A stretch of DNA of 64,000 bases, taken from the NCBI RefSeq assembly GCF_947623445.1, contig NC_135244.1:8308001-8372000 (forward strand), given 5' to 3'. Position 1 is the first letter of the stretch. Every line of letters begins with the position of its first letter. The stretch is from Clavelina lepadiformis. Lineage: Eukaryota > Chordata > Ascidiacea > Aplousobranchia > Clavelinidae. The position numbers and the translations under genes were made by a program. Below the pieces are notes generated by a model. That model made no database searches. It was not told the DNA's origin and saw nothing but the letters and a program-made list of their open reading frames with translations. Shown here piece by piece: positions 22,993 to 64,000 of the stretch.

Positions 22993-24462
22993 ATGGACTT
23001 GACACGGTATAACCTTTTTATATTAATGGAAAAATAAAGTTATTTTTATGTATTTGCGCGTGGTTTAAAATCTCAAACTTACCTGCGATACCTACTTCTT
23101 TTTTTGAAATGCAGTATTTTTCGTTTTGTTGTGATTATATTGATTTGTAAATTATTTTCTCCGATAAAACTTTTCGAAAAAAACTGAACTTTGTTTTTGT
23201 TTGTACAGAGTCGTAAAAATAGAACAATCTACATCAACTGATGATTGGCTTCAAATTCGAGAGTGCTTTGTACACTCGTTTCGTCACTACCCGCTTTACA
23301 AATACATGGTCCCTGAGGAATCAAAGCGGGATGAATTTTTACGTGCCTACCTCGACGCAAATTACGAAGTCACTGTTGGTAGCGGACAAGGTATATTGTT
23401 GGCCGTCAAGATTCCTGCTGACGACAATTTTGCTTCAATTCCCAATGAGACTGCGGCAACACCATCCAAAGTGATTGGTGGTGTCGTGTTTCTACCCCCT
23501 TCTAATGACGGCTGTGGATGGGCGATTGGAAGTGACGAGCCATACTGGCAAGCTTACGAAAAATACGGACTTGCCAAAGTTTCAAAGACCGGATTTGAAA
23601 GAGTTTTGAGGTAAATTTTTAAGCCTACAAATTTTTGCTATGTACGGTCATTCAACAGTAGGTGTCATTAATACGTGTCACTAATTTCAAACACATGCTG
23701 ACAAAAAATTGTGCGGTTTAATTTAGATACGAAGCTTGGGAAAATGAAAATGTTGCTCAAAAAGCATCCAGGACCAAAATTCCTCTTTGGAATGGACTCT
23801 TTTGCGCCATCTCGCCCAAATACTCGTCCAAGGGACTGGGTACAACTGTTTACAAAGAAGCAATCAGAATAATGGCGAGCTACTGGGACGAAAATCATGT
23901 TGCAGTGAAAGCAAAATCCACCATTTCTATCGCTGAATCGGTTCGTCAGGAGAAGAATGGTTCAAAACCCTCCAACCAACTCCAACAAGAATCCAGCTTC
24001 CTTGACAAAATTGTTCGCAATTTATTTTTCAAGAACCTCCACATTTTCTCCTTACTTAGTCACAGACAGCTTCCCCAGCCGGTAATTGTGCAGACAAAAG
24101 ATTCCAAAATTAACTTAAAACCCAAACTCACATCAGCTCAAGCGAAAACCCAGTCAACCGATACAATGCACATGACCTCTGCACCACTGGTGGTAGCTAT
24201 AAGTCATAGCGATAGGGCTGCACATTTTCACCAAGCCAACGGCTTTCTTCCCGTACTTCGTATACCTTTTTACGATGAAGTGGAAAACATAACGCCGTTC
24301 TACACTCACGTTTTGATTCTCGACCCTTTCCGCACAGGAAAACTTGATGAGATTTCTTCCGGCTTACAAGCCCACGTAAATGAAGAAGACATAAAAACCT
24401 CCAGCCACGCCCACTTTAACAACTTAATGATTGCTCAACGAGATCCGTTAATTTTGCAATAA
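22993..24462 (+). CDS. GNAT-family N-acetyltransferase (gene 1)
   Basis: Three coding exons: 22993-23006 (ATG GAC TTG ACA CG), 23209-23610, 23727-24462; all introns are GT-AG and the phases fit, giving 383 residues. A GNAT fold is suggested by an N-terminal helix region (HYPLYKYMVPEESKRDEFL), a beta strand with VIGGVVFLPP, the acetyl-CoA loop of motif A in AISPKYSSKGLGTTVYKEAI (the R/Q-x-x-G-x-G/A pattern), and a motif-B-like HFHQANGF near residue 310. The layout resembles the puromycin-acetyltransferase-like branch. An insert of about 90 residues, rich in Lys, Gln and Ser, separates motif A from the later part; it differs completely from the insert in genes 2 and 3. The substrate is unknown. 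The very short first coding exon is chosen because genes 2 and 3 have an exon of exactly the same length and phase. Confidence 0.87.
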
Positions 24463-29213: not shown

Positions 29214-30553
29214 TCATTTCACAATAATTTTATCGGTTGGTGCAGATTTCAGAGTGTCGTACAAATGGCTTGTTTGCGTTATCTCCAAATCTGTCGTCAA
29301 GGAAACATCTTTTTGCATGCCGCTGGTTAATTCGTGGAGTCTTCCTGTTGAAAATGGGTCAAGTGCGAGAATGTGGGTGTTAAAATGGGTTATATTATCG
29401 GAGTCGTCAAAAAACGGAACTTTTGACACCGGATGAAAACCATTTGATTTATGGAAATGGGCAGCCCTATCGCTGTGACTAATAGCGACCACGAGAGGTG
29501 CTGAAAATCGGGCTTTGTTGCATTTCATGTTGGTAAAGTGTGATATAGTGTCTTTGGAAACAAATTCGTCCTTAAGTACTGTAAAATGTTCTTTCAGTTC
29601 TTTCAAAGACAAACGACGCTTACACAATGAAACAATTTTATCCACTTGTTCCATTCTTTGCTGTTTAGTTTCCTTGACGGATTGAGATCGCTGGTAAGTT
29701 TGTCTGATTTTCGTCGACATTTGCTTTTGAAGCCAGTATTTCGTCATTATGTCGATGGCTTTCTTATAAACGAGCGTTCCCAGACCCTGAGAGGAATACT
29801 CGGGCGAAATTGCACAGAACAAACCATTCCATAGAGGTATACCTAGTTTTGAAACCTTTTTGTTAACCTTTTCATTCTCCCATGCTTCGTACCTGATACA
29901 GAAATGAGTGTAATTAGCATGTTTATTATAGACTTTTAAGTCAACGTTTACATAATCCATCTCTAAACGATCACTTTGCGACAGCATCTATGAATAGTAT
30001 TGCAAACTTATTTTCGCACATACCGAATTACTCTTTGGTATCCTTCTTCAGAAATTTTTGCAAGGCCATGTTTTTCGTAAGCTTGCCAGTAGGGTTCATC
30101 ATTTCCGATTGCCCAACCACAGCCGTCTGCAGAAGGTGGAAGAAAAAGGACTCCGCCGATAACTTTCGTTTCTTTCGAGTTGGTTTCTGGGTCATTGTTA
30201 CTGTCATCAGAAGACCAAAACCGAATGACCAGCAGTATTCCTTGGCCGCTCCCAACTGTAACTTCGTAGTTGGCGTCCAAGTATGCGCGTAAAAAATCGT
30301 CTCTCTTTGTGTCATCTGGCACCATGTACTTGTATAGTGGGTAGCGGTGGAACGAACGGACGTAGCACTCGCGGACTGCTTCCCAGTCTTTGTAAGATTT
30401 CGACAGTTCAATTTTCAAATTTCTGGAAATCGTAAGTTTAAAGTTTTTTAAATAAAACTTCGCTGTTTTACATTTCCAAGACCAGTATTGATTTATAATA
30501 ACTTTAAGTAGGGTATATGTTGATTATAGTAAAGCTCACCTCTTTGAGTCCAT
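29214..30553 (-). CDS. GNAT-family N-acetyltransferase (gene 2)
   Basis: Minus strand, three exons: 30553-30540 (ATG GAC TCA AAG AG), 30422-30024, 29892-29214 (stop TGA); 363 residues. Exon lengths and phases match gene 1 (14 bp, about 400 bp, last exon). Conserved blocks: RYPLYKYMVPDDTKRDDFL, VIGGVLFLPPSADGCGWAIG, the acetyl-CoA loop in AISPEYSSQGLGTLVYKKAI and HFHKSNGF. The roughly 80-residue insert after motif A is Lys/Arg-rich and probably helical (QRMEQVDKIVSLCKRRLSLK), unlike the insert of gene 1. It is nearly identical to gene 3, with scattered substitutions (for example HFHKSNGFHP against HFHQSNGFRP). The frame is intact, so it is likely functional. The substrate is unknown. Confidence 0.87.
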
Positions 30554-34953: not shown

Positions 34954-36288
34954 TCATTTCACAATAATTTTATCGGTTGGTGCAGATTTCAGAGTGTCGT
35001 ACAAATGGTTTGTTTGCGTTATCTCCAAATCTGTCGTCAAGGAAACATCTTTTTGCATGCCGCTGGTTAATTCGTGGAGTCTTCCTGTTGAAAATGGGTC
35101 AAGTGCGAGAATGTGGGTGTTAAAATGGGTTATATTATCGGAGTCGTCAAAAAACGGAACCTTTGACACCGGACGAAAACCATTTGATTGATGAAAATGG
35201 GCAGCCCTGTCGCTGTGACTAATAGCGACCACGAGAGGTGCTGAAAATCGGGCTTTGTTGCATTTCATGTTGGTAAAGTGTGATATAGTGTCTTTGGAAA
35301 CAAATTCGTCTTTAAGCACTGTAAAATGTTCTTTCAGTTCTTTCAAAGACAAACGACGCTTACACAATGAAACAATTTTATCCACTTGTTCCATTCTTTG
35401 CTGTTTAGTTTCCTTGACGGATTGAGATCGCTGGTAAGTTTGTCTGATTTTCGTCGACATTTGCTTTTGAAGCCAGTATTTCGTCATTATGTCGATGGCT
35501 TTCTTGTAAACGAGCGTTCCCAGACCCTGCGAGGAATACTCGGGCGAAATTGCACAGAACAAACCATTCCATAGAGGTATACCTAGTTTTGAAACCTTCT
35601 TGTTAACATTTTCATTCTCCCATGCTTCGTACCTGATACAGAAATGATTGTAACTAGCATGTTTATTATAGACTTGTAAGTCAAAGTTTACATAATCCAT
35701 GTCTAAATGATCACCTTGCGACAGCATCTATGAATAGTATTGCAAAATTATTATCGTACATACCGAATTACTCTTTGGAATCCTTCTTCAGAAATTTTTG
35801 CAAGGCCATGTTTTTCGTAAGCTTGCCAGTAGGGTTCATCATTTCCGATTGCCCAACCACAGCCGTCTGCAGAAGGTGGAAGAAAAAGGACTCCGCCGAT
35901 AACTTTCGTTTCTTTCGAGTTGGTTGCTGGGTCATTGTTACTGTCATCAGAAGACCAAAACCGAATGACCAGCAGTATTCCTTGGCCGCTCCCAACTGTA
36001 ACTTCGTAGTTGGCGTCCAAGTATGCGCGTAAAAAATCGTCTCTCTTTGTGTCATCTGGCACCATGTACTTGTATAGTGGGTAGCGGTGGAACGAACGGA
36101 CATAGCACTCGCGGACTGCTTCCCAGTCTTTGTAAGATCTCGACAGTTCAATTTTCAAATTTCTGGAAATCGTAAGTTTAAAGTTTTTTAAATAAAACTC
36201 CGCTGTGTTACATTTCCATGACAAGCATTGATTTGTAGTAACTTTAAGTATATGTTGATTATAGTAAAGTTCACCTCTTTGAGTCCAT
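34954..36288 (-). CDS. GNAT-family N-acetyltransferase (gene 3)
   Basis: Minus strand, exons 36288-36275 (ATG GAC TCA AAG AG), 36162-35764, 35632-34954 (TGA); 363 residues, the same structure as gene 2. The acetyl-CoA loop SSQGLGTLVYKKAI and the HFHQSNGF block are intact, with no stop or frameshift. Differences from gene 2 are few and concentrated outside the conserved blocks and in the introns. The short first intron happens to be open in frame, so an unspliced reading would add an unrelated N-terminus; the three-exon model is preferred because all three paralogues share it. Confidence 0.87.
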
Positions 36289-36425
36289 TGCAAATTGCTC
36301 TGAGCGCGGAAATCTTTGATAAAAATTTGTACCCTCGAAGATATACGGTTGGTGCTGATTCACTTAAATCGCTTGCTTGGAAACACTCTGAAAAGGAATT
36401 AATGTCGGTTATGTGCCAGGGCAGG

Positions 36426-43732: not shown

Positions 43733-45069
43733 TTATCTAGGTGTCTCAGTGGTCTGTTGGAATGAAGGAGGAAGTGGAGGCAAAGCCGTGTTAGACTCTG
43801 GGCAACGAGTGCATGATCTACAAGACAAGGGACACACAGTGATCGTGTGTGGGAAGCCGAGTTCACTCCTGCAATAACCCTGATCCCTCCACGACGGACA
43901 AGCGGCGTGATTATCCTTGCAATCTGTACAATCGTGAATAATGCGTGTTAAAACTAAATTTGTAAAAACTTTTCACAGGTTTATGAAACGTCTGAATTAA
44001 CCTATGACCTACATAACAACAGCAAAAATGTAACATTGCCTACCATCACTACAAGGTGGTGCAGTAGGAGGAAGAACGCACTCTGTGCATAAACTGCATG
44101 TTTTCTTGCATTTGGTCGACACAAAGGCACATTGGTTCCGGCCTTTAAATATGAAGCAGTATGCAGCTGGCCACTCGTCGCGGCAATCTGTTAAGGCGGA
44201 TATACTTATTAGGATTAGATGAAAGGTTATTGTGTCAAGTTCATTGCGCCATTCTAGGGATGTCTGTACATGAAGGTCAATTATGGGCTGTTTGTTTAAA
44301 TGCCTTTGATGTTATAGCATAACTCTCTCACCGATTTCGCAGTTGGATTGGGAAATGCTTAACGACCTTGATGAAACGCAGGGTGTGCATAGACCACACG
44401 TTTTAGAACAGGAAAGCTGTATACCAAGAGACCATCTGCTATTTTTGTTGCATCGACCAGCAAATAATCGACAATATAATGCACTTTTATCAACGCAGTT
44501 TCCTGTAAAACCAGTGTTTAGATTAATAATCAAGCCACCCTTGTATTAATTTAATAGCTAAACGCCAATTGCTTCATTTATTGGAATTGAAAACTTTCAT
44601 CTAAATAGCATGACATACGACAATTTGTTGTAGGTCTCTGCTGTACTGGTGATGGATTGAGACCAGAATTCTGCCCAAATCCTAATTGCGATCCTCCACC
44701 AGTGTTTTGTTGGTTCGAAACCTGGTTTCCACCGGAAGGCTGCGATCCTCCACCAGTGTTTTGTTGGCTCGAAACCTGGTTTCCACCAGAAGGCTGCGAT
44801 CCTCCACCAGTGTTTTGTTGGCTCGAAACCTGGTTTCCACCTGAAGGCTGCGATCCTCCACCAGTGTTTTGTTGGTTTGAAACCTGGTTTCCATCAGAAG
44901 GCTGCGATCCTCCACCAGTGTTTTGTTGGTTTGAAACCTGGTTTCCACCGGAAGGCTGCGAACCTCCACCATAACTTGAATACTGGCCGTAGTAATTGTA
45001 TTCGTATTGCGCATGACTCGCTAAACCATTGCAGCAAATCAGTAAAGCACATATCAAAAAACTATTCAT
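43733..45069 (-). CDS. Secreted repeat protein with three ShKT domains
   Basis: Minus strand, four exons: 45069-44619, 44502-44332, 44187-44044, 43923-43733 (TAA); 318 residues, all introns GT-AG and phase 1. It begins with a signal peptide (MNSFLICALLICCNGLASHA) and a Tyr-rich stretch, then five tandem copies of an 18-residue unit GGGSQPSGGNQVSNQQNT and part of a sixth. Each of the last three exons encodes one ShKT domain with six cysteines in the usual spacing (CVDKSALYCRLFAGRC...SCSKTCGLC; CRDEWPAAYCFIFKGRNQC...TCSLC; CKDNHAACPSWRDQGYC...SCRSC). Phase-1 exons fit one-exon-per-domain shuffling. ShKT domains occur in many secreted metazoan proteins, including matrix, peptidase-linked and channel-binding ones; the function here is unknown. 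A TATA box lies at 45135-45144. Confidence 0.87.
44688..44965 (-). repeat. 54-bp tandem repeat within the ShKT gene
   Basis: Five in-frame copies of a 54-bp unit (TGCGATCCTCCACCAGTGTT on the plus strand and onward) differing at only a few positions, so the array is young or being homogenised. Confidence 0.93.
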
Positions 45070-45134
45070 TTTCTCGCTTTAAAGTTTGACTCTAAAGATG
45101 ATGGAATTCTGTATGTTTCTGTCGATATAGAGTG

Positions 45135-47552: not shown

Positions 47553-49048
47553 TCATATATCAAGGTGATTGAGACCAAATTCCAGCAAAGTCTTCTTGTT
47601 TTGTTCCTGGATCACAACACTTTCTCCTTCCCACTTGCTTTTTGTTGTTTCAATCTTGCCAACCAAAGAATCTAACGCTTCAGTTAAAACTCTTTCATAT
47701 GCCCCCTTCAAAGTTAAAATAGATGCAAAATGTTAAAGATACAGAATGTATTTTAGTGAAAAGCAAATTAAGATTTAAAAAAGATATTGTGGTAGATTCT
47801 GCTAATAAAGTTAATTGGAACTAAGTTGATTTCAGAAGAAAGAGCACACTGAATGAATAGTGAAGACTTATGAAACATACTAAGACCATCAAATCGATGT
47901 TTATTATGATACATATACTGATTTATTTTATAATTCCTGTAGCAGAAAAATCATACTTTTTCATTGTCACAGTCTGTAAACACATCCATGAATGCTGTTC
48001 ACACGCTTATTTACTTTTAAAGGGATGTTTACATGAACAATCACCTTTTGACCAGAGACTCAACTTTTTAAACTTTGTTTCAAGAAGATCAAAGCAAGTG
48101 GTTCTATTTTATAAGCAAGATCTACTATAATGTAATGTATTTGCAAGCAATTTGCAGTAAAAAGCTTACTTCCATTCCATCAATTCTCATTTCTAAATTA
48201 GAAATTTTTTCATTCTTTTCAATTTCCATTCTCTCCTTGGCCAGCTTTGTACTTTGCAGCTCTTGTTGTGTGTGGGATAGTTGCTGGCGTAAGTGTCCCA
48301 CCTTAGTTTAATATATCAAATCAAGTAAAACGGGATGACACAACATCTTGGGCAATTAATTGGAAGCTCTGATATAGTAAAATTATGTTTCATTTTCAGA
48401 AAGGAGAACCAAACCTCAGCTTCAAGCTGATGGACATGAATTCCCAATTCTGTTTGCATGGTTTTGTACTGCCTGGTCAAGTCTGCACTGATATTTTTTT
48501 GTTCATTTTGTTGTTCTTTAAGAAGATCTTCAGCCTGGTTGCATTTCTCACGAGCATCTACAGCTGCAGCTTGTGATCTGCGAGCGATCTCATTCCGATG
48601 AGCTTCAGATTGAACAAATACAAGAATGTGGAAATGCAAGTTTTACACTATGTTAGTTTAAGCATGCACAATTCTGGTAAAGTCAAACATTAACTGAGTA
48701 TGTAAGTTTGGTGGTCATACCAGATGGCTGCTCCACTATAATTAATACCACCATTGAATTAAACATCTGGCACAGTTAAATCCCTTGAGGCTTTGCCAAT
48801 TTTCCCATTTGGGAATTGCATGAAAGAATGTTTTTTTTCTATTGAGCTGTAACCATTAGCACCATTTTTTGCTCCTCACAGTTTATGGTCAAAAATACAC
48901 AATATCAAATTATCGTTTTACCTAAATGATCTTTTAAAATTTCAATTTCACGAGCGGTTTTCTTGAACTTGTCTTCTTCCTTTGCTTCATCTTTTTTCCC
49001 CTTTTTTCCTTTCTTTTTTCCCTTTCCTTTCTTCTTTTTTGGTGGCAT
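47553..49048 (-). CDS. CCDC153: Dynein regulatory complex subunit 12 (CCDC153)
   Basis: Minus strand, exons 49048-48922, 48602-48415, 48301-48170, 47705-47553 (TGA); 199 residues, all introns GT-AG with consistent phases. It starts with a basic MPPKKKKGKGKKKGKKGKK segment, then long coiled coil: EIEILKDHLG, ISADLTRQYKTMQTELGIHV, HQLEAEVGHLRQQLSHTQQE, LEMRIDGME. It ends with YERVLTEALDSLVGKIETTK and a short KKTLLEFGL tail. This follows the vertebrate CCDC153 order (Pro-Lys start, RxHxLQxE-type coil, LEEEVxxLRxQL, YEEILxxSLDxLLxK, W, xxFGL end) at about the usual length. The known role is as a coiled-coil subunit of the nexin link (N-DRC) in motile cilia and flagella. Confidence 0.9.
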
Positions 49049-53569: not shown

Positions 53570-56500
53570 ATGGAAGCAAATCTTTCATCCAACCTTATTA
53601 TGAGTATGAATGATGTGCCAGTTCGATTAAATCTTATTAGTGATGATGAAAATGATGTAGAAGAAGAGGAATCGTTTACAACAGCTGAACTGTTAAATGT
53701 CACCGAGCAAGTAAGATGATTTATAATATTATTGTATGGATTGTGTGCAAAAATTTATACCTAGATGTTGGGGCAGTAGTGCTGGTAGTTAGAGTATGCT
53801 AAGACAAACAGGTTGGATTTAAAAAAATTTATTCAAGTATATAAAATTGTAAAATGTAACAACTAGCAATTTATCCTATAAGCTTCAGGTTTTTCTTCAG
53901 CCTAGAATAAACTATCAAATTGAAGATATTAGCATTATTTCAAAAAATATTAACAGGATCATGTTAGCACTTCCCTCGTAGAATCTGGAACAATTCCAGG
54001 ACTTGCTGCAGCGGCTGCGTTAGTTACTTCCAGAAAAAGACAGCGTCCATATAACTTTGAACTGAACCCATCTGCTAGAAAGCGTCAACACACACGTCTA
54101 ATCAGGTGGGACAGTTCTTTGCAATATGTAGTTACTTAGTTTTGCTTTGCTTGTTTTCAAATCGGATCTTTATGCATTGTTGTGTAGAGGAAGAATGTAG
54201 CGATAAATACACACAGTTTTTGACTTGAGCATACAAAAGATATTTTTTAGCGAGCTGCACTTAGTACTCATTCTCTAATTAATTTCAATCCAGAAAGTTG
54301 AAGCAAACAATTCATGAGTTGTGCACGCGGTGTGGTCAACAGGCAATCGTACTGTGTGTTTCTCCTGGAAAAGAAAACCCGAGTTTTCGAGTATTTGGTT
54401 CTTCCCCGTTAGATCAAGTGGTAAGATTTCCCAAATTTATCCTGTTCTGTGTGACCTGCATTAGGCCATTGTTTGAATTGTTTAGGCGATTTTTTTAATC
54501 CTACCAAAATTTAAATGATTTTAGCTGTTATGGAGTATGGATATATTAAATTTGTTTATTATCAGGTGAAAAATTGTCAAGGGATAATATTTCGTGATCT
54601 TGAAACAGAACTACAAGACAAACTTCCATCACAAAGAGATGGAAGTAATGAATTGTTTGAACTACCTAGTTTGATGGTCGAAGGTATTCCAACCACCATC
54701 GATGAAATGAATCAGGTATATACCATGCCTCCAATAAAGTTGAATCGCAATTTGAGTCTCTTTATGCGGAACGTATGTATATTTGTAATGAGTGTGTAGT
54801 ACTATTTTAACTTTAATTTGTCTTAAAGTGTAATCGCAACACTAAAATAAGTTTACTGTACCAAAAAGTAAAATATGCAGTATATAGCTAATATATTTGC
54901 GCAATATGCATGTTTTACCTGAAAACTCAATTTTGAAAAGTAAGAAATTGTCCTTGCCCCACTGCCCACAATCATTTTAATGTCATTACCCCCCACATAC
55001 TTTGTGCATGAAAGACGCGATTGATTAATCGATTCATGCAAGCAAGTACCTGGAAGACTATAAAATCACAATGATCATAATGTGGGTGAAATTTTTCGTA
55101 TTTCTGCCAATTGTTTGAGTTTTGTGTTGAAACATGCACACTGCACAGTTAGATTTCAAACAATGTACTGCAAACTTTATTTTATGGTATGGTAAACTTG
55201 TCTCTGTTTTGTATTATTACTTTATTTTAAGACAATTTGGTTTTAGCATTGCGATTGCATTTTAGCATGAAAATAAGTTTGCTTATACAGCTTATCATAT
55301 ATTAATATTTTTATTTTTTAATGTTTTCTGCTTGAAACAGTCCCAGCTGCGTATGTTTATCCCTGAGATGTTAAAATATTCAACTGGCAGAGGTAAACCC
55401 GGATGGGGTAAAGAGTCAACCAGACCAGCATGGTGGCCTCAGGATGTTCCATGGGCGAATGTGAGGAAGGATGCTAGAAATGAAGAAGCTAAGTTAAAGG
55501 TATAGTCTAGTCATGGATCATTTCCTGCTGTGTACTGTTCTTATGAAAAACATACATATCACAACAAAGAGAGGGCCAAAAATGTTACCCTTTTAAATTC
55601 ATACCAGTTTCCACAACACCTAACTCTTACTTTTAGATAAATTATAGAAAGAGCCTTAGATCTTTATCTTAAAGCATCGATGCATGTAACAATTCAATAC
55701 GTTTTGAAAAAGACAGTAACATTTTGGAATCGTATTTTATAGCAAAATTGGTAGTCTGCATTCAGTGACAATTTAAGAGTGTCTTTGACTTTTCTGGGAA
55801 AAACACCTCCTTAGAAGATGATGTTTGTCACAGAAGAGTAATCTTTTATGTGCAGACTGATGCTAATAAAAAACATTCATTTCTATTAAAATATTTGCTG
55901 CAATCTGAGCGTGCAAAATCTGAATTCTGCTTGGAAACAAGTAAAGAGATGTTTACTTTATTTGTCTAAGGCAGGGACGGGCAACTTCTTCGGTCGGCAG
56001 GCCTGATATGAGAAAATGAAGTACTTGGCGGGCCGGATTCCTGAATAGATTGGAACGCAGCTTTGTCTTATTAATGTTCATGGTCGAAAATGTTTGCTCA
56101 TAAATGTATGTAGACCCGAACAGAACAAGTATATTTATGGCCATCTTTCTCAGGTTGGCAAACTTGGACTTATTCAGTGACGCAATACAGGGATTGTGGC
56201 AGAATGTGGCCGCAGGCCACATTATCATGTAAGACCGGAAACTGTCTGCGGGCCGCTCAAAATCCTGTCGCGGGCCGTATGTTGCCCACCCCTGGTCTAA
56301 GGGTTGCCTCAAGAGAGTAGTCTCCAGTGGAAAACATTTTGTTAGTAATTTCTTCAAATGTTGTCTCAGATTCGTAAGGTCATTGGTTATCAGGGTACAC
56401 TGTGGTCTACCACTATGTTCCTGTCACCAATTGATCCTGAAATTTTTGGGAGATGCCTGATTGTGAGTTTCTTGGGAAGATTACTCATGAGAAAATCTAT

Positions 56501-58297
56501 CTTAAGTTTTCTCTTGGTGTACGGCGTGGTTTCGTTGCAAAATATGCCCTCTATTTCAAACTGTTTCAGGTTGTTGGATTCATTGATGCTTTGAGATAAA
56601 ATATATCAGGTTTATCTAAAAATAAGAACTACAAATTAGTTACTGGAGACTTGGAAAAAATTTTGAAAAGATATACTGTATAACATTATTTGGCCCACGA
56701 TGCATATGCAATTTTACTTATATGAATTCACATTTGTAGGTTACATGTATAGATGGTTTACAAAATGTTTTACGACATTGTGTGCCACTTAAATTTCATT
56801 TCAGACACGTTACTTGACTTGAATATTTCTGCTTTATGGTGATGAAGAAATTATGATTTCTTTGATATTGTGTTTACTAATCAACATAGAATTTTTGAGC
56901 TAGGTTTCATGGACTCAAGCACTCAGGCAAATCGTGAAAAACTGCTATCACTATCATGGCCGAGAAGATTTACTGAGGAGTATTAATTCAGACAGAAATT
57001 TTAAAACTAATTCTTCAGCAAGTAACCAAAGGTACCATTTAGGGGAAGTTTTCTTTTTGTATGTTGTCATTATTTACTGTTTTGTCAAAAGCTTAAACAG
57101 CCTATTTTCCTATAGAAAGAGGTTTGGAAAAGGTGTAGTGTCACCCGTGAATGTAACACCTCCCACTTTGGTACAGACAGTGCATAATGCCGATGGATCT
57201 GTGTCATTAGTTCAGGTTTGTATTAAAAAAGACTGTGAAAATCTTTTTTGTATTATGGCATTGAATTTTGCAAAGATGTATGTTATTACAGATATTGAAA
57301 TCAATACACTGGTAACTATTTTTCAATAGACAGGAAGTCCATGAAATGTGTAACCTTTTGAATCTTCTTTCCCTCTCAGCTTGATTCTGGGCAGACAATT
57401 GCAACTATCACCCGTGATCAAACCGGCAGCGCTGTAGCCACTCTCACAAACCAGGACACTGATTCACAAACGCACATGGACATATCAATGGAAGAGGTAA
57501 TAAATGCAAGACTAAAGTAGTGAACAAGACCCTCCCGTATTTAAAACAGCATTGTTTTTGAGTCTTCATCTTTTTGATTGTACGTGTTTTATTGTTTTTT
57601 CAGATAGCAAATGCCGATTGGCTGACCGGCCAGGATAGTAACATTGGTGCCGCATATAGTGTAATAACCAATGTAAGTGGAGATAACGCTGAGGGTTCCA
57701 AACTCTCAGAACAGAACAGAATTGAGCTTTCTTTCGATTCAAACCAACAGGTGCTTTGCATTATTTATTTACTTTTCCATGTTGTTTCGTCTTCCAATAC
57801 ATTAGAACGGTCTGTCTAGGCTTCCAATAAGATTAGATCGGTGTGTCTAGGCTGAGTGTATGTAGGTTTCCAACAGTGTAAGGTTTGCTTTTATTTTTAT
57901 CAGATAATAAATGCTGCTGGATTAACGGATAGCGTTGCATTGCCATCTACTGGTGAAGGTAAGGTGTATTGGTTTGCACAATAAAATCTCATAAAAACGT
58001 TTTAGCACTTTTATCCATGCAAATTGATAAACAGAGTCTTGAAGTGATATTTAAAAGATTATGACACAGTTGTAAATTTGCCTAACCGTACTTCATTTGT
58101 TTACAGCAATGGTCCAAATTCCGGTCTCAGTATACGAAAAGATCGCTAACTCCATTCAAGGTTCCGGTGGCCACCCAACGGTGTCCATATCGGCTGATGG
58201 TAGCATCCAATTACAACCCTCTGTTATTAATATAGAAGACAAAGCATCGATCAAGTCAGATAAAGACAATATTAATGTCGCTGCGTCATCGACATGA
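53570..58297 (+). CDS. NRF1: Nuclear respiratory factor 1
   Basis: Eleven coding exons: 53570-53710, 53957-54105, 54294-54420, 54566-54715, 55341-55499, 56904-57031, 57116-57215, 57380-57496, 57604-57750, 57904-57958, 58107-58297; 487 residues, every intron GT-AG and all phases consistent. The DNA-binding/dimerisation region is strongly conserved: RKRQRPYNFELNPSARKRQH, LCTRCGQQAIVLCVSPGK, RMFIPEMLKYSTGRGKPGWG, WWPQDVPWANVRKDAR and VSWTQALRQIVKNCYHYHGR. The N-terminus is acidic and Ser-rich. The C-terminal half is the Gln/Thr/Val-rich activation part and ends with a VQIPVSVYEKIANSIQG block like vertebrate NRF1. The protein is a homodimeric transcription factor binding GCGCA-rich promoters of nuclear genes for mitochondria and growth. 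A hAT MITE sits in intron 5. The start ATG is followed by an acidic segment; an upstream noncoding exon is likely. Confidence 0.97.
55972..56294 (-). mobile_element. hAT deletion derivative in NRF1 intron 5
   Basis: Ends CAGGGACGGGCAAC and, on the complement of the right end, CAGGGGTGGGCAAC, with a perfect 8-bp duplication GTCTAAGG at 55964-55971 and 56295-56302. The minus strand inside encodes a C-terminal hAT transposase fragment. Confidence 0.92.
56038..56181 (-). pseudogene. hAT transposase C-terminal (dimerisation) fragment
   Basis: The minus strand reads FANLRKMAINILVLFGSTYI, then YEQTFSTMNINKTKLRSNL. This is the hallmark C-terminal hAT dimerisation block (LxxxALxxLSLFGSTYxCEQxFSxMNxxKxxxRxxL). 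The rest of the transposase is missing. Confidence 0.88.
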
Positions 58298-58356
58298 GTA
58301 ACTGGTGGGAATGTGAAGTTTATGTTGACACATGCGACAGACAAGCGCACTGTCTT

Positions 58357-58362
58357 AATAAA
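58357..58362 (+). terminator. Candidate NRF1 polyadenylation signal
   Basis: AATAAA 60 nt after the NRF1 stop codon. A longer 3' UTR using later signals cannot be excluded. Confidence 0.45.
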
Positions 58363-59712
58363 GCGTTCTACCAATCTACCCCGGGCAGTATGTAGCTGCA
58401 TTTCACGCTGCACCCTCCACAAGGAGCTCGTCTACTGTTCATTATTATCTAACAACAGACTTTTAACCAGGTACAGACATGTTAATCGTTGCCTGGGCTT
58501 TGGACATTATCTTGACGAAAGGGTTGTCCCCTGAATGGCCATGAAGTGACCGTGACCACGTTTTCTTCTGTTATTTACTGTTAAATTGTTTTAAACAAAT
58601 TAACGTTGTTTTGAATAGCGTTAGGTATCGATTCATAGGCTGTGTGGCAGTAAGACAACTGTTTGCGCAAATCTTTTCCGTTATACATTTGCTTATGGGT
58701 TATCATAAACGACAGCTTTAGCCTGACATAGTTTATGTTTAATACATTATAAAGATTAACCTTTTTAAATAAATCTTGTCGAGTTCTCATCGAACTGATG
58801 ATTCAGGTATCACTTCGGCTTCCATATGTCAATCTCTGCGAAAAGAATACCAGCACGGTCTCAAACGGCTTTTGGTGTTTGTCAATTCTTAGATTGAAAG
58901 AATCGAAATAAATTATGCATAGTTTTTAGCAGATGGAATATCGATTACGACCGGACGCTGCAACCCACTTAGTCACTTCTTTAATTTCTTCTCAGTAAAA
59001 TTTAACTCCAAACTCCCACATTGTGGATCCACGATTTGTGGTACCATATACTACATACAGTATAATGTATGATATACACTGTACAGTATATAATCCAAAC
59101 AAAGCAAATATGTGTGTTTGACTTCTGCCTGTTTAATAGATTGGTTTTGGTTTGAAGTACACATTGTATCCTGCTGCGATTTGTTGTGTCATTGCATCAG
59201 TTAACGTTTGTGGAAATGTTTTCTGTAATAAAAGGTTTACGACGTCATGTACTTGGTCTTATTCTGTAATGATTTAAAGGTCAAGAACAAACGAAGACCT
59301 TAACTATATCACAAGAAGTATCTTTAACCGCCAAACGGCTGGAAATCAATTAAAACCGGTCTCAATCTTCCTTGTCAAAAGGAACTATTTGGGCGTTTGT
59401 CTTTTAGTTGCTGCCAAGGCAATCAATTTTTGAATCATACTTGCCGTATTTTTTCAATCTCGCAATTGTCCGAATGGCTACGTGAAGGCGAGAAACAGCT
59501 GTTGGCATCCCGGCCTTAAGTCATCAATATTTCATTACCTTGTCGTGGAAGTACGGGCCCGAGATCAATGGATCAATGCTCGTCCTGGAAAAAAGCACAA
59601 GTCAATTTTGCACAACTTTGAAGTATTGATGAAACTTTCAGACGTTGATGTGAATCTCATTCGTGTTGGCCAATATCTCTGTTCAAACTTCACACCGTGG
59701 TCAATGCGGGGT
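58363..59712. other. Intergenic between NRF1 and the miRNA cluster
   Basis: Convergent flank. It contains TACAGTATA/ACTGTACAGTATATA-type short palindromes near 59040-59095. No gene recognised. Confidence 0.5.
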
Positions 59713-59790
59713 TCTAGTGTTTGGCAAGATACAAACCACTGGATACGCTAAATGATCCAACGTGAGTTCTATATTTTGCCAAGTACCATA
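59713..59790 (-). ncRNA. mir-182: miR-182 precursor
   Basis: On the minus strand a hairpin with 5p arm CTTGGCAAAATATAGAACTC (mature about 59783-59761) and 3p arm TGGTTTGTATCTTGCCAAAC. Human miR-182-5p has the same seed (TTGGCAA) and the same 3' part TAGAACTCAC; the 3p arm keeps the TGGTT...CTTGCCAA pattern. The arms pair over about 20 nt with a few mismatches and a roughly 20-nt loop. The middle of the mature RNA differs, with one extra nucleotide compared with human. In vertebrates it is co-expressed with miR-183 and miR-96 in ciliated sensory cells. It is the last hairpin of the cluster in the direction of transcription. Confidence 0.87.
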
Positions 59791-60025
59791 CCTCGCTGCT
59801 CAAGTTACTGCCTACCTCGACCTTTCTCCTGCAATTCGACGAAAACTTTCCATGTATGATGTACCCTTGCGTTACTTTGTAACCTTAACCTGCACACGAA
59901 AGTTGCCACGTGACCACTAACAAGTTAGAATGTTAAGAAATACAGTAACTTATACGTATATAATGATAGGATAGCTTTCGACGGTTACCTCAGTGGTCTA
60001 AACTGGTTGCAGATAGCTTGAAACG

Positions 60026-60094
60026 CCTTGATTAGCACTTTGTCATGATTGATTCACCTTCCGTATCAATTATGTGCAAGTGCCAAACCAAACG
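60026..60094 (-). ncRNA. mir-96: miR-96 precursor
   Basis: On the minus strand, mature 5p at 60087-60066 begins TTTGGCACTTGCACATAA. The first nine bases, including the whole seed, match vertebrate miR-96 (TTTGGCACT), and GCACAT follows in the same place. The 3p arm AATCATGACAAAGTGCTAAT pairs with it and resembles human miR-96-3p (AATCATG...GTGC.AAT). The loop is about 11 nt. It lies about 280 bp upstream of miR-182 on the same strand, so probably in one primary transcript. Confidence 0.92.
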
Positions 60095-61317
60095 AAGCAA
60101 CACTGTTGTGACTTTCGTAATAACTTGAAACTCATATTCGCAACACTGTTTATAAAAGAAGGGATAGTGAAAGTTTTTTTTGTAGCTGTGAGGCACGACT
60201 ATGTCATCTCTTTGGAAGAGAAATGCTTCTGGAATGCATAAAAACTCCAGCTTTGCTTTACGCACCGTTAGTCTGTCACTCTAATCTGGTTAACATGAAC
60301 AGTGTCTCTATATCTGGTTGGGCATAGACTAGACAACGACAGTCACACTATTTTCGATCGTTCGTTTAATAAGCAATACAATACCTCATTCTAGTTTCGT
60401 TTTGTAGGCTGCTTGTTCTAATATCTACAAAGCGCACGTGAGGCTTTCAGTAGACTACAAAAGTACTCGGTAATTGTCGATTGTCTTTCCATGAGGATCG
60501 CGGTACAGCCATTCACCGCTTTTCACCACATGGTCAGCTGATGGTCATCGTCCACCTGCCAAACACGACCTTTAAGGTTAGCGCTTTTACTGCGTGTAGA
60601 ATGATGGCTACAAGAGGACCATTTTATAAACCTTTTCCCTTTTTCTTAACTGATTACTCCACAGTCTTATGATGCGTTTCAAACTGGCGGCAGCTTTGCC
60701 CTTCCACAAAGTACATTAAGATGGTACGCGCGTCCAATAAAAGATATAATTAATCAAGTTTGTAAATCCGTTTCGAACGTTAAAAGAAGTCTTCTTATTA
60801 ATTTATGCTACTGCTGATTCGTGACGTAACGATTTAATAAATGATCAGCTTCATGTCTCGTGGTCTCGTGGAATGACGTTTTATCCATCTACTAAATTAA
60901 TAACTTACCGTAACTTAAAAAATTGGCAATAACCATCGTAAATTTAAAATACAGCAATGCAAAAGCTTATGACAGTGGATTATGTTTCACTATAAATCTA
61001 TATTTCCATTATAAGTGATTATACGTGTAGGCAATATGGCTATCTCCTGATATGCATTTATTGTGAAATTAACAAAAGCTAAAGTTAAAACTCTGAACGT
61101 GCAAACAAAAAGCGGACGCTCAGTATTGCCTTCGACATTTCAAAACAAGTACATATCGCACAAAAATTTTGGTTCTATACTGATGTATCAAAAACCCTGG
61201 TAACGCTCTGAAATAAATGAATAAAGTAATGAATATATGAATATATACCAAAAGCTGAATAGCTCAAAACATATTTGCAGATCGTAAACATGCCGTGTGT
61301 AGACGTTGAGAGAATTC

Positions 61318-61388
61318 TGTGCTAATTATGGCACTGGACAAATTACTGGTGTACACAACAGTGAATTCTACCAGTGCCATTTGTAGCA
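61318..61388 (-). ncRNA. mir-183: miR-183 precursor
   Basis: On the minus strand, mature 5p (about 61381-61359) reads ATGGCACTGGTAGAATTCAC, matching vertebrate miR-183 over this whole stretch; the related insect family is miR-263. The 3p arm CCAGTAATTTGTCCAGTGCC pairs with it, and flanking GCTA/TAGC bases extend the stem. It is the first hairpin of the cluster, about 1.3 kb upstream of miR-96. Confidence 0.95.
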
Positions 61389-64000
61389 AAGAACAAAGTC
61401 ATATTTTCTTTTAGTATCATGCTGACTTATCTATCATAAGATCCAGTTATTCTTCAGATTTGCACACTTTCAAACTTTCATACATTCGCCACTTATACAT
61501 GTGGTCTAAACGTTTTTTTTACCAAAAGCACTTTGTTATTTGTTTCATCTTTGTTGAAAGCTGTCAAATATCTACAATCGTTAAGTGACATTTAACATCC
61601 ATCACTATACGTATAAAACTGGTCTGCTTAAGTCATTATTGATAAAAAGTGCTCGTAAAAAAGTTGCGCTAGTAAAGAAAAACAGATCTGTGCGTGGTGA
61701 CGTTGGCGTTACTTTATTACATAAAACAATAGCGGTATGTGGTAGGAAGCAGTTGATAGATAACGTATTGTACGTGGTTTCCAAAGAATGCATACAGCTG
61801 GGCTCTGGGGCACTGGTTAAACGTATGCTAATTTATACATAACCGGAAGGGTTTTGCTGATGAATTAGACGTGCCGATTTGTTTCTTATCTCAATGTTCT
61901 TTATATTTACAGGCCTTGTGATTAGTCTTAAGTAAACACGCTCTAATATTTTACCTATACTGTAATGAATTTGTAATCTTGTGTCTCTTTTAAAGATTTA
62001 CTTTCGTTCGTGCAAGTCGCACATAAAAAGCCCATTATTGCAAGTACACCTAATAACTACTAAGATTTAGCGGACGTATCCGCAATAGGCCTTGATTACC
62101 TCGTCATTTACCGGTTTTAACAAGCGCCTGAGTTGCGTGGGATTTTGCAAATGAATGTTCGTAAAGCAAATGAGAGTTTTAGAACGGTTTCAGCATCAGA
62201 CTTTGTTGAAAAGGGCCACTTAAAAGGTTGCAAGTATTAATTAGCGCAAACATTTGTATTAAGGCAATATAAAACAGATCTATACGCATTTTATTTACTA
62301 TAATCCAAAGTTTATTAAACGCTAAGAAGTGTAAGTATACCAACATAAATGTAGGCTTTTGCCTGATGTAGCTTAATACAACCTGACATTTCAGGAGATG
62401 GCTCAAACCGACCACTAAACTTGCCGACTCGTCTGTAAAGTGTTGCTCGTAGAAGAATTGTTTGACGGTTGTTGCTGTTATTAGGAACACTTCTATAACC
62501 GTTTGCTACGTGTGTTGAATCTCAGTATTATTTGCGCTATGTACCGTAGTGTATTATGCAAATTTTTTAATCAGTATAATTTGCTGATTAACGGTAAGAT
62601 AAATTTGTAAATATGACCGTCAAGCGGCGCTATTCGACTTTATACAAGAAGTTTTCTTTGATATGACCTATATCCTTGACGTCTGTGATCGTATTGAAAG
62701 AATCATTTTTCTGTATTCGTGAAAAAGATAGAGACTAACAATTTTGTCTCTGTAACAACACTAAATTTATACGTACTGAATGGTAAGTAAAATTAAAAGC
62801 AAAAACAGTGTTATATAAATTATATGATGTTTTCCATTTATAGTATTTAAAGCGTCTGAATCCTATTCATTTTTAAAGTAAGACTGAAAACACAATTTTC
62901 TCACTCAAGACAGCAGTTTACCAATCACCTTAGGCCAACATACCTGGGTAATGCAAGATAGAAATAATAGGTATTAACTAAATATGTTCTAAGCGGTAAG
63001 AAATACGCAGTAGGCAATTCTAAAGCGCTCTTCCGTTACGTTTCGGTATGATACAACGCCCATACTCCCCCATTGGTTCATAGCAGTCACCTGACTTCCT
63101 ACTTCCTTCCGAACGATTCTGACGCATTATGAAGCGCGTGGGCCTCAGGAGACGCCCACGTTTGCTTGGTTTTCACGCCAAATTTATCTGGGTACGAACC
63201 CATTTACATAATATTTGTGCACAGATATATTGTGAGCAGCCTTCTCATAAAATTTTTAGTTCAAAAATTTCGTCCACGAAAAGCAAATATCCTGATTATA
63301 AGCTTGTAAAATTCGCCCCAACTTTTAATATTTTATTATACTTACTGTTCTTATATACTTTTCTAAATGAGTGCGTCGTGTCCTATATTGTCAGTTCGAT
63401 ATCAATTCCGATATCACTGTATGTATCATGGAGTTTTGATCAATATTTAAGTACAACTTACGGTAAATACAGAAAACCTAAAAGCAAACCTTTCTCCGCA
63501 CCATAGCGTAATTCCATTCATGAAAAATATGGCACCGGGTTAAGTAGAGCGCTATTGAGACCAATTCAGGCAGATATATTGCAAATATATAAAATGGTTT
63601 AGAATCGTAGCGTTTGACATTGTGACTGTTATACTTTTCGAGTATCCCGTGAGATATATTACGCCGATTACCAACAGTTCAACAACACACTTTCATTTTG
63701 CTCTAGAGATCGTTTTATGGTAATTGCTGTGCAAATTGCAATTGCAATTATGGCAAACTTTAATTACCACAGTTTCTTAGCAAATAAACCCGCTCAACTG
63801 GCTCACCCGCTTAAGAAATGTGATATTCTTTTACAATCATCTTTACATGTCTTATTCTATGCAATAGTGTTGAACAATATGTACCTTCGCATTCAGTCTT
63901 TATTGAAATACTGTACCGTCATTCATATACTGTATACTATATAATTGCTGTAACGCATTATTGTTATAGGAATAAAGCAAAAAACCTAGTTATAAATTTA
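61389..64000. other. Region upstream of the miRNA cluster; no protein gene recognised
   Basis: It may contain the promoter and 5' part of the miRNA primary transcript (minus strand). A GC-rich patch around 63050-63170 with CCTACTTCCTTCC and a CGTGGGC...GCCCACG inverted repeat (63137-63160) is the most promoter-like stretch. Open frames here (for example 63129-63506) show no recognisable domain. Confidence 0.4.
63137..63160. promoter_or_regulatory. GC-rich inverted repeat in candidate promoter
   Basis: CGTGGGC, a ten-base spacer, GCCCACG, in otherwise AT-rich DNA. It is placed about 1.75 kb upstream of miR-183. Role inferred only. Confidence 0.25.

What the first reader, a model, noticed from the sequence alone, without database searches (positions are those of the whole stretch)
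53570..61388. NRF1 linked to a convergent miR-183/96/182 cluster, as in vertebrates
The sequence shows NRF1 on + followed by three hairpins on - in transcription order miR-183, miR-96, miR-182. In human 7q32 the same cluster lies just downstream of NRF1, on the opposite strand and in the same order (established knowledge). Keeping gene pair, strand and order in a genome this rearranged suggests a shared regulatory domain, or that cluster control elements sit in or beside NRF1. The spacing differs: here 96 and 182 are about 0.3 kb apart and 183 is 1.3 kb away, whereas in mammals 183 and 96 are the close pair.
Basis: partly seen in the sequence, partly recalled or inferred. Interest (0 to 1): 0.88.

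Follow-up and report, generated by a model that had tools for sequence, protein, structure and literature searches.

The report
Sea-squirt NRF1 beside miR-183/96/182 cluster
In a sea squirt, a sensory-cell microRNA cluster sits tail to tail with the gene NRF1 just as it does in mammals, so this gene neighbourhood most likely dates back to the common ancestor of tunicates and vertebrates; why it has lasted is not shown.

Summary
The window matches chromosome 5 of the ascidian Clavelina lepadiformis by length. NRF1, whose DNA-binding domain matches nowhere else in the assembly, runs on + from 53570 to 58297. Three miR-183-family hairpins follow on -: miR-182 (59713-59790), miR-96 (60023-60095), miR-183 (61316-61392). 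miR-183 passes Rfam's threshold. The other two fall below it but match Halocynthia roretzi miR-96 and miR-182 at 18/20 and 20/20 bases. Human and mouse papers put the cluster between UBE2H and NRF1. Here UBE2H is 12.7 Mb away and two other 7q32 genes are on other chromosomes, so only the NRF1 side is kept. The spacing (96 and 182 close, 183 distant) also occurs in Halocynthia. A shared regulatory domain is plausible but untested; passive retention of a 1.4-kb gap fits about as well. No 7-mer target site for the three miRNAs lies on + from the NRF1 start to the miR-182 hairpin. My searches found no printed report of the linkage outside vertebrates, but two key papers were not read. Verdict: a real, probably inherited linkage; a new instance of a known arrangement.

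The parts
53570..58297 (+). NRF1 gene: coding exons from ATG (53570) to TGA (58295-58297), about 11 exons, splice sites read by eye
   Evidence: tblastn and splice reading, PF10491, solved human NRF1 8k4l E 2.7e-90
58298..59712 (.). Tail-to-tail interval between NRF1 and miR-182; AATAAA on + at 58357, 58768, 58907, 59227; on - ATTAAA at 59137, 58985, 58743 and no AATAAA; no 7-mer target site (m8 or A1) for the three miRNAs on +
59713..59790 (-). miR-182 hairpin; mature CUUGGCAAAAUAUAGAACUC at 59764-59783
   Evidence: Rfam RF00702 28.6 bits, E 0.0031, below gathering; 20/20 identical to Halocynthia miR-182; z -3.5
60023..60095 (-). miR-96 hairpin; mature starts UUUGGCACUUGCACAUAAUU at 60068-60087
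   Evidence: Rfam RF00669 21.6 bits, E 0.66, below gathering; 4 mm of 23 to human, 18/20 to Halocynthia; z -3.8; exact 20-mer once in genome
61316..61392 (-). miR-183 hairpin; mature AAUGGCACUGGUAGAAUUCACUGU at 61358-61381
   Evidence: Rfam RF00706 52.5 bits, over gathering; 21/22 to human, 21/24 to Halocynthia; z -6.6

Best explanation
This is the ascidian counterpart of the vertebrate NRF1 / miR-183-96-182 locus, inherited from the common ancestor of tunicates and vertebrates. The three hairpins on - are most likely processed from one pri-miRNA that starts beyond 61.4 kb, runs 183 -> 96 -> 182 and ends in the 1.4-kb interval where NRF1's own + strand transcript ends. Shown: gene identities, order, strands, one genomic place for the NRF1 domain and for the miR-183 match, the same cluster order and spacing pattern in Halocynthia, and displacement of the three other 7q32 neighbours that were answered. 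Inferred: a single pri-miRNA, ciliated sensory-cell expression (reported for the family elsewhere), and the reason the NRF1 side stayed together. My slight preference for that reason (about 45%) is that elements the cluster needs lie in the interval or in NRF1 introns; passive retention of a short gap is nearly as likely (40%).
For: NRF1 identity and domain uniqueness; three hairpins in order; one genomic miR-183 match and one exact miR-96 match; Halocynthia scaffold S181 carries miR-182, -96, -183 all on - in the same order, with 182 and 96 close and 183 4.5 kb off; mouse cluster lies between Ube2h and Nrf1; in human NRF1 and UBE2H are the flanking genes and UBE2H is immediately upstream on the same strand, and NRF1 is named as a flank again; UBE2H, ATP6V1F and ZC3HC1 are elsewhere here. 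My arithmetic, not from a call: a random minus-strand position falls within 1.5 kb 3' of this one gene about 4 times in a million.
Against: miR-96 and miR-182 are below Rfam's gathering scores, and miR-182 is no closer to human miR-182 than random sequence (8 mismatches). Against a single pri-miRNA: minus-strand poly(A) hexamers lie between miR-183 and miR-96 (AATAAA 61062; ATTAAA 60838, 60370), while the interval after miR-182 has only ATTAAA; these numbers are near what composition gives (1.2 per hexamer expected), so they say little either way. No small-RNA reads were available. Human NRF1 orientation and the mammalian distances are recalled, not read in a call. NRF1 linkage was not checked in any other tunicate, amphioxus, hemichordate or echinoderm. 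UBE2H orthology rests on exon identity (64-72%), not on a tree; a longer but weaker UBC match on C8 (36%) had the best E-value.
Confidence: 0.86

Rival explanations
1. Passive retention (a rival only about why the link was kept): the linkage is inherited but has no function. The interval is so short (1.4 kb, flanked by coding exons and hairpins that cannot be broken) that few viable breakpoints fall in it, so the pair survived by luck while the UBE2H side was lost.
For: Short gap; UBE2H side broken; no 7-mer sites for the three miRNAs in the interval or across NRF1; no functional data.
Against: In mammals the NRF1-cluster gap is much larger (about 13 kb, recalled) and still unbroken. Rearrangement here is extensive: all 3 other 7q32 genes answered, of 5 tried, are elsewhere.
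Confidence: 0.4
2. Genomic regulatory block (likewise about why): NRF1 introns or the interval carry enhancers of the sensory-cell cluster, so a break between them is selected against; NRF1 is the bystander.
For: One-sided retention. The 22.6 kb on the 5' side of miR-183 (61.4-64 kb and the next 20 kb of the contig) show no Pfam domain in a six-frame read-through scan (positive control), so no close gene competes for the neighbourhood as far as that scan can see.
Against: No enhancer, contact or reporter evidence. The 5' side, where promoter-proximal elements are expected, is the side whose gene neighbour changed, and it has room for the enhancers. The scan is insensitive: it also missed the CCDC153-like gene at 47.6-49.0 kb.
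Confidence: 0.45
3. Direct coupling: the cluster and NRF1 regulate each other, through convergent transcription or miRNA sites in NRF1.
For: Poly(A)-type hexamers on both strands lie in the same 1.4 kb, so the 3' ends may overlap.
Against: No 7-mer seed match (m8 or A1) for miR-183, -96 or -182 on + from 53570 to 59712; only three 6-mer positions, 55105, 57941 and 59412. No full NRF1-type motif (GCGCATGCGC and near forms, recalled) anywhere in the window; the half-site TGCGCA occurs 8 times, once in the interval at 58664.
Confidence: 0.1
4. Chance adjacency: the two genes came together independently in ascidians and vertebrates.
For: Linkage not checked in an outgroup here.
Confidence: 0.02

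Closest known systems
Mammalian miR-183/96/182 locus (human 7q32.2, mouse chromosome 6, between UBE2H and NRF1)
   Same: Three family members, with NRF1 on the 3' side of the cluster; same transcription order and NRF1 convergent (both recalled for human).
   Different: UBE2H is not the 5' neighbour here (12.7 Mb away); 96 and 182 are the close pair instead of 183 and 96 (mammalian distances recalled); NRF1-to-cluster gap is 1.4 kb against about 13 kb (recalled).
Halocynthia roretzi miR-182/96/183 on scaffold S181 (PMC5399378, Table 1 passages)
   Same: Order, single strand, 96-182 close and 183 distant, mature miR-182 20/20 identical.
   Different: 96-183 gap is 4.5 kb rather than 1.2 kb; NRF1 neighbourhood not stated in the passages seen.
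Ciona miR-183 and miR-96 (PMC3145563 and PMC2884542, passages)
   Same: PMC3145563 says the two genes appear to be adjacent in Ciona intestinalis; both families were identified in Ciona.
   Different: No distance, no miR-182 in that statement, and no NRF1; so it neither confirms nor excludes the 96-182-close pattern in Ciona.
Amphioxus, sea urchin and acorn worm miR-183-family linkage (PMC2728532, PMC3145563, passages)
   Same: Members of one family linked in invertebrate deuterostomes.
   Different: Term search for 'nrf' gave 0 occurrences in both main texts.

Membership tests
miR-183/263 family (Rfam RF00706, clan CL00093) | Covariance-model score over the gathering threshold | tested here: met
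   miR-183 hairpin 52.5 vs 51.3 bits
miR-96 (Rfam RF00669) | Covariance-model score over the gathering threshold | tested here: not met
   21.6 vs 65 bits. Called miR-96 by mature identity (4 mm of 23 to human, 18/20 to Halocynthia), hairpin fold and position, not by Rfam.
miR-182 (Rfam RF00702) | Covariance-model score over the gathering threshold | tested here: not met
   28.6 vs 71 bits, E 0.0031. Called miR-182 because the mature is 20/20 identical to the Halocynthia miRNA of that name and by position, not by Rfam.
miR-183/96/182 cluster | Three family members on one strand in the order 183, 96, 182 within a few kb | tested here: met
   61316-61392, 60023-60095, 59713-59790, all -, accepting the naming of 96 and 182 above
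miR-183/96/182 cluster | Mature small RNAs from the three arms, one pri-miRNA | not testable with these tools
   No small-RNA or RNA-seq reads. csa-miR-183 is expressed in Ciona savignyi larvae, and miR-96 was detected by RT-PCR in Halocynthia embryos.
NRF1 | Nrf1_DNA-bind domain and C-terminal VQIPVS motif | tested here: met
   PF10491, 8k4l E 2.7e-90; C-terminal exon aligned to human residues 442-495 with only E 0.058 by itself
Vertebrate NRF1 / miR-183 locus | Cluster on the 3' side of NRF1, opposite strand | tested here: met
Vertebrate NRF1 / miR-183 locus | UBE2H as the 5' neighbour of the cluster | tested here: not met
   Best-identity UBE2H exons at C5:21.10 Mb; window at C5:8.31-8.37 Mb
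Genomic regulatory block | Cluster enhancers inside or beside the bystander gene | not testable with these tools
   No chromatin or reporter data

The most novel reading that the evidence does not exclude
NRF1 and miR-183/96/182 form one of the few genomic regulatory blocks kept from before the tunicate-vertebrate split: enhancers of a ciliated-sensory-cell miRNA cluster lie within NRF1 or in the short interval and have pinned the pair together while the other neighbours moved, so the sensory control of the cluster would be homologous between sea squirts and the mammalian ear and retina.
Probability: 0.3. Interest if true: 0.72.

Novelty: new member of a known kind. Interest (0 to 1): 0.5.

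Why it matters
A gene-miRNA linkage kept between a sea squirt and mammals gives a short stretch (1.4 kb here, plus NRF1 introns) in which ancient control elements of a sensory-organ miRNA cluster could be sought, in embryos suited to reporter tests. It would date the cluster's neighbourhood to before the tunicate-vertebrate split. It also shows that 96-182 closeness is shared by two ascidians of different orders, and that published absences of miR-182 in tunicates may be threshold misses: this hairpin scores 28.6 bits against Rfam's gathering score of 71.

Tried and rejected
Exact 21-nt miR-183 pattern in viral contigs and genome contigs: 0 matches each, so no second eukaryotic locus could be fetched. 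COX1 for species naming: no match in this copy of the assembly; the species was taken instead from chromosome 5 length (24,617,235 bp, against 24.62 Mb in Table 2 of PMC10884593). The assembly copy has 95 contigs and 209.06 Mb, while the paper gives 102 scaffolds and 210.1 Mb; Ascidia mentula also has 95 scaffolds but only 197.0 Mb. miRNA target sites in NRF1: no 7-mer m8 or A1 sites; only 6-mers at 57941, 55105 and 59412. GCGCATGCGC-type NRF1 motif: none; half-site TGCGCA 8 times. Repeats at 58.3-64 kb: only short two-copy families and the miR-183 hairpin arms stood out. Pfam read-through scans for neighbours: 43.6-53.6 kb both strands gave only a ShK domain on -; 33.6-43.6 kb - strand gave nothing, its + strand and 1-33.6 kb were not scanned this way; 61.4-64 kb and 20 kb beyond the window gave nothing. 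Searches held only two of three minus frames by my slip; one search added the third. The positive control on NRF1 worked, but the scan missed the CCDC153-like gene. Ten window ORFs scanned singly gave one weak match, SPATA1_C below its cut-off, in an exon of that gene. I read two ORFs beyond the window by eye as sulfotransferase- and tetraspanin-like; Pfam did not confirm either, so I dropped both. TMEM209 and STRIP2 families as further synteny controls did not complete, so the neighbour test is 3 genes of 5 tried. Two papers that would be the best place to find the linkage in print, Pierce et al. 2008 (not held) and the deuterostome linkage paper cited as reference 13 in PMC3145563, were not read.
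Full report
What the window is. The assembly's fifth contig is 24,617,235 bp, matching chromosome 5 (24.62 Mb) of Clavelina lepadiformis in Table 2 of PMC10884593 (passages seen). The window is C5:8,308,001-8,372,000.

NRF1. The start codon is at 53570 and the stop at 58295-58297. The DNA-binding domain family PF10491 matches five places in the genome, all of them these exons. The N-terminal 284 residues, joined by hand from those exons, match solved human NRF1 (8k4l) at E 2.7e-90. The C-terminal exon is weaker by itself (E 0.058) but carries the VQIPVS motif in order.

The three hairpins. miR-183 (61316-61392, -) passes Rfam's gathering score and is the only RF00706 match reported in the genome (with 54 of 12172 first-look candidates scored). 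miR-96 (60023-60095, -) and miR-182 (59713-59790, -) are well below theirs (21.6 against 65 bits, 28.6 against 71). Their naming rests on mature sequence and position. miR-96 differs from human at 4 of 23 positions, which 0 of 100 random 64-kb sequences reach, and from Halocynthia at 2 of 20, which 1 of 100 reach. miR-182 is not recognisable against human miR-182: 8 mismatches, the median of random sequences, and the best place in the window for human miR-182 is in fact the miR-183 arm. But it is identical over 20 of 20 bases to Halocynthia miR-182. All three fold better than all 300 shuffles (z -6.6, -3.8, -3.5). By folding alone 96 and 182 would not stand out: three other single-loop minus-strand windows in the same 5.7 kb, apart from miR-183, are more stable. 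The exact miR-96 20-mer occurs once in the genome; the four 2-mismatch matches are at the level of the reversed-pattern control (5 matches in all against 6).

Comparison. The table in PMC5399378 (passages seen) lists Halocynthia scaffold S181: miR-182 at 160894-160804, miR-96 at 161093-161016 and miR-183 at 165741-165631, all -. The order and the spacing pattern (121 nt, then 4.5 kb) are those of the window (232 nt, then 1.2 kb). Halocynthia and Clavelina belong to different ascidian orders (Stolidobranchia, recalled, and Aplousobranchia), so this pattern may be old in ascidians. For Ciona I saw only the statement that miR-183 and miR-96 appear to be adjacent (PMC3145563, passage), with no distance and no miR-182. 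The contrast with mammals, where 183 and 96 are the close pair, is recalled. Mouse: the cluster lies between Ube2h and Nrf1 on chromosome 6 (PMC4468907, passages). Human: NRF1 and UBE2H flank the cluster and UBE2H is immediately upstream on the same strand (PMC5580467, passages); a HepG2 study puts a microRNA cluster, identified by its references as this one, between a lincRNA and NRF1 (PMC7137282, passages). NRF1 therefore lies on the 3' side of the cluster in human, as here. That human NRF1 is on the opposite strand is recalled.

How rearranged is the neighbourhood? Of five other human 7q32 genes tried, three were answered. The best-identity UBE2H exons (64% and 72%) lie on the same chromosome 12.7 Mb away, ATP6V1F on C9 and ZC3HC1 on C1. 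TMEM209 and STRIP2 did not complete in ten attempts (see Tried and rejected). The gene 5' of NRF1, divergent, is a CCDC153/DRC12-like gene (47553-49048, -; closest solved chain CCDC153, E 4.8e-11). Human CCDC153 is on 11q, recalled. So the NRF1-cluster adjacency is kept while each other neighbour that was answered is elsewhere.

Mechanism. The likely anatomy is one pri-miRNA on - starting beyond 61.4 kb and ending between 59.7 and about 58.7 kb, where minus-strand ATTAAA hexamers lie (59137, 58985, 58743), facing NRF1's AATAAA hexamers (58357, 58768, 58907, 59227). Against a single transcript, minus-strand hexamers also lie between miR-183 and miR-96 (AATAAA 61062; ATTAAA 60838, 60370), and the canonical AATAAA is absent on - after miR-182; composition alone predicts about 1.2 of each hexamer in such stretches, so neither result is strong. 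The two 3' ends may overlap NRF1's; this is inference. miR-183 itself rises in Ciona savignyi larvae at 42 h (PMC5831862, passages). miR-183 homologues are expressed in ciliated sensory cells in flies and nematodes and in potential neurosensory cells of an acorn worm (PMC3145563, passages). No 7-mer target site for the three miRNAs lies on + between the NRF1 start and the miR-182 hairpin, so direct feedback through this stretch has no support.

Why was the link kept? By my arithmetic chance reunion is negligible. Between constraint and luck the data do not decide. For constraint: retention is one-sided. For luck: the gap is only 1.4 kb. The 61.4-64 kb stretch and the 20 kb beyond the window on the promoter side show no Pfam domain (control), which would leave room for enhancers there instead. 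The scan is insensitive to short or divergent exons: it missed the CCDC153-like gene.

In print. Searches for miR-183 with NRF1 and Ciona or synteny gave no paper, and broader ones gave none that, from its listing or the passages I opened, ties NRF1 to the cluster outside vertebrates (20 of 48 and 20 of 89 hits listed). Only open-licence papers are held, Pierce et al. 2008 is not, and the last topic search failed twice. The statement is therefore limited to those searches. Of note, PMC8704543 (passages) reports miR-182 as not found in Didemnum vexillum and absent in C. savignyi and O. dioica. A hairpin like the one here would be missed by Rfam's threshold, so those absences deserve another look.

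Verdict. The most economical reading is a conserved ancestral linkage, a new instance of a known vertebrate arrangement, with a spacing shared with another ascidian. A regulatory block is an attractive, testable but unproven extension.

Noticed in passing
window 47553-49048 (-): CCDC153/DRC12-like ciliary gene, head to head with NRF1; closest solved chain is CCDC153, E 4.8e-11.
   Followed up: yes
window 55972-56294: A 323-bp element in an NRF1 intron with hAT-like ends (CAGGGACGGGCAA ... TTGCCCACCCCTG) and an 8-bp target duplication GTCTAAGG; the hAT label is recalled.
   Followed up: partly
window 61316-61392 (+): The antisense strand of the miR-183 hairpin also scores 34.7 bits against mir-263; in Ciona 44 of 380 predicted miRNA loci appear to give antisense products (PMC2884542 passages).
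   Followed up: no
window 59713-59790: miR-182 was reported not found in Didemnum vexillum and absent in two other tunicates (PMC8704543 passages), yet a miR-182 identical over 20 nt to Halocynthia's is present here and scores far below Rfam's threshold; earlier absences may be threshold misses.
   Followed up: partly
window 60096-61315 (-): Minus-strand poly(A)-type hexamers between miR-183 and miR-96 (AATAAA 61062; ATTAAA 60838, 60370), near the number expected from composition.
   Followed up: partly
window 23168-24459 (+), 29217-30523 (-), 34957-36359 (-): Three ORF groups that look alike by eye, perhaps recent paralogues of one gene; no Pfam match for the five of these ORFs scanned.
   Followed up: partly
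window 44387-45078 (-): A secreted-looking ORF with a tandem repeat (by eye), followed downstream on the same strand by a ShK-like domain.
   Followed up: no
outside the window: G000 C5:21098574-21103129 (-): The best-identity UBE2H exons lie on the same chromosome as NRF1 and the cluster, 12.7 Mb away, possibly a trace of the old linkage.
   Followed up: partly
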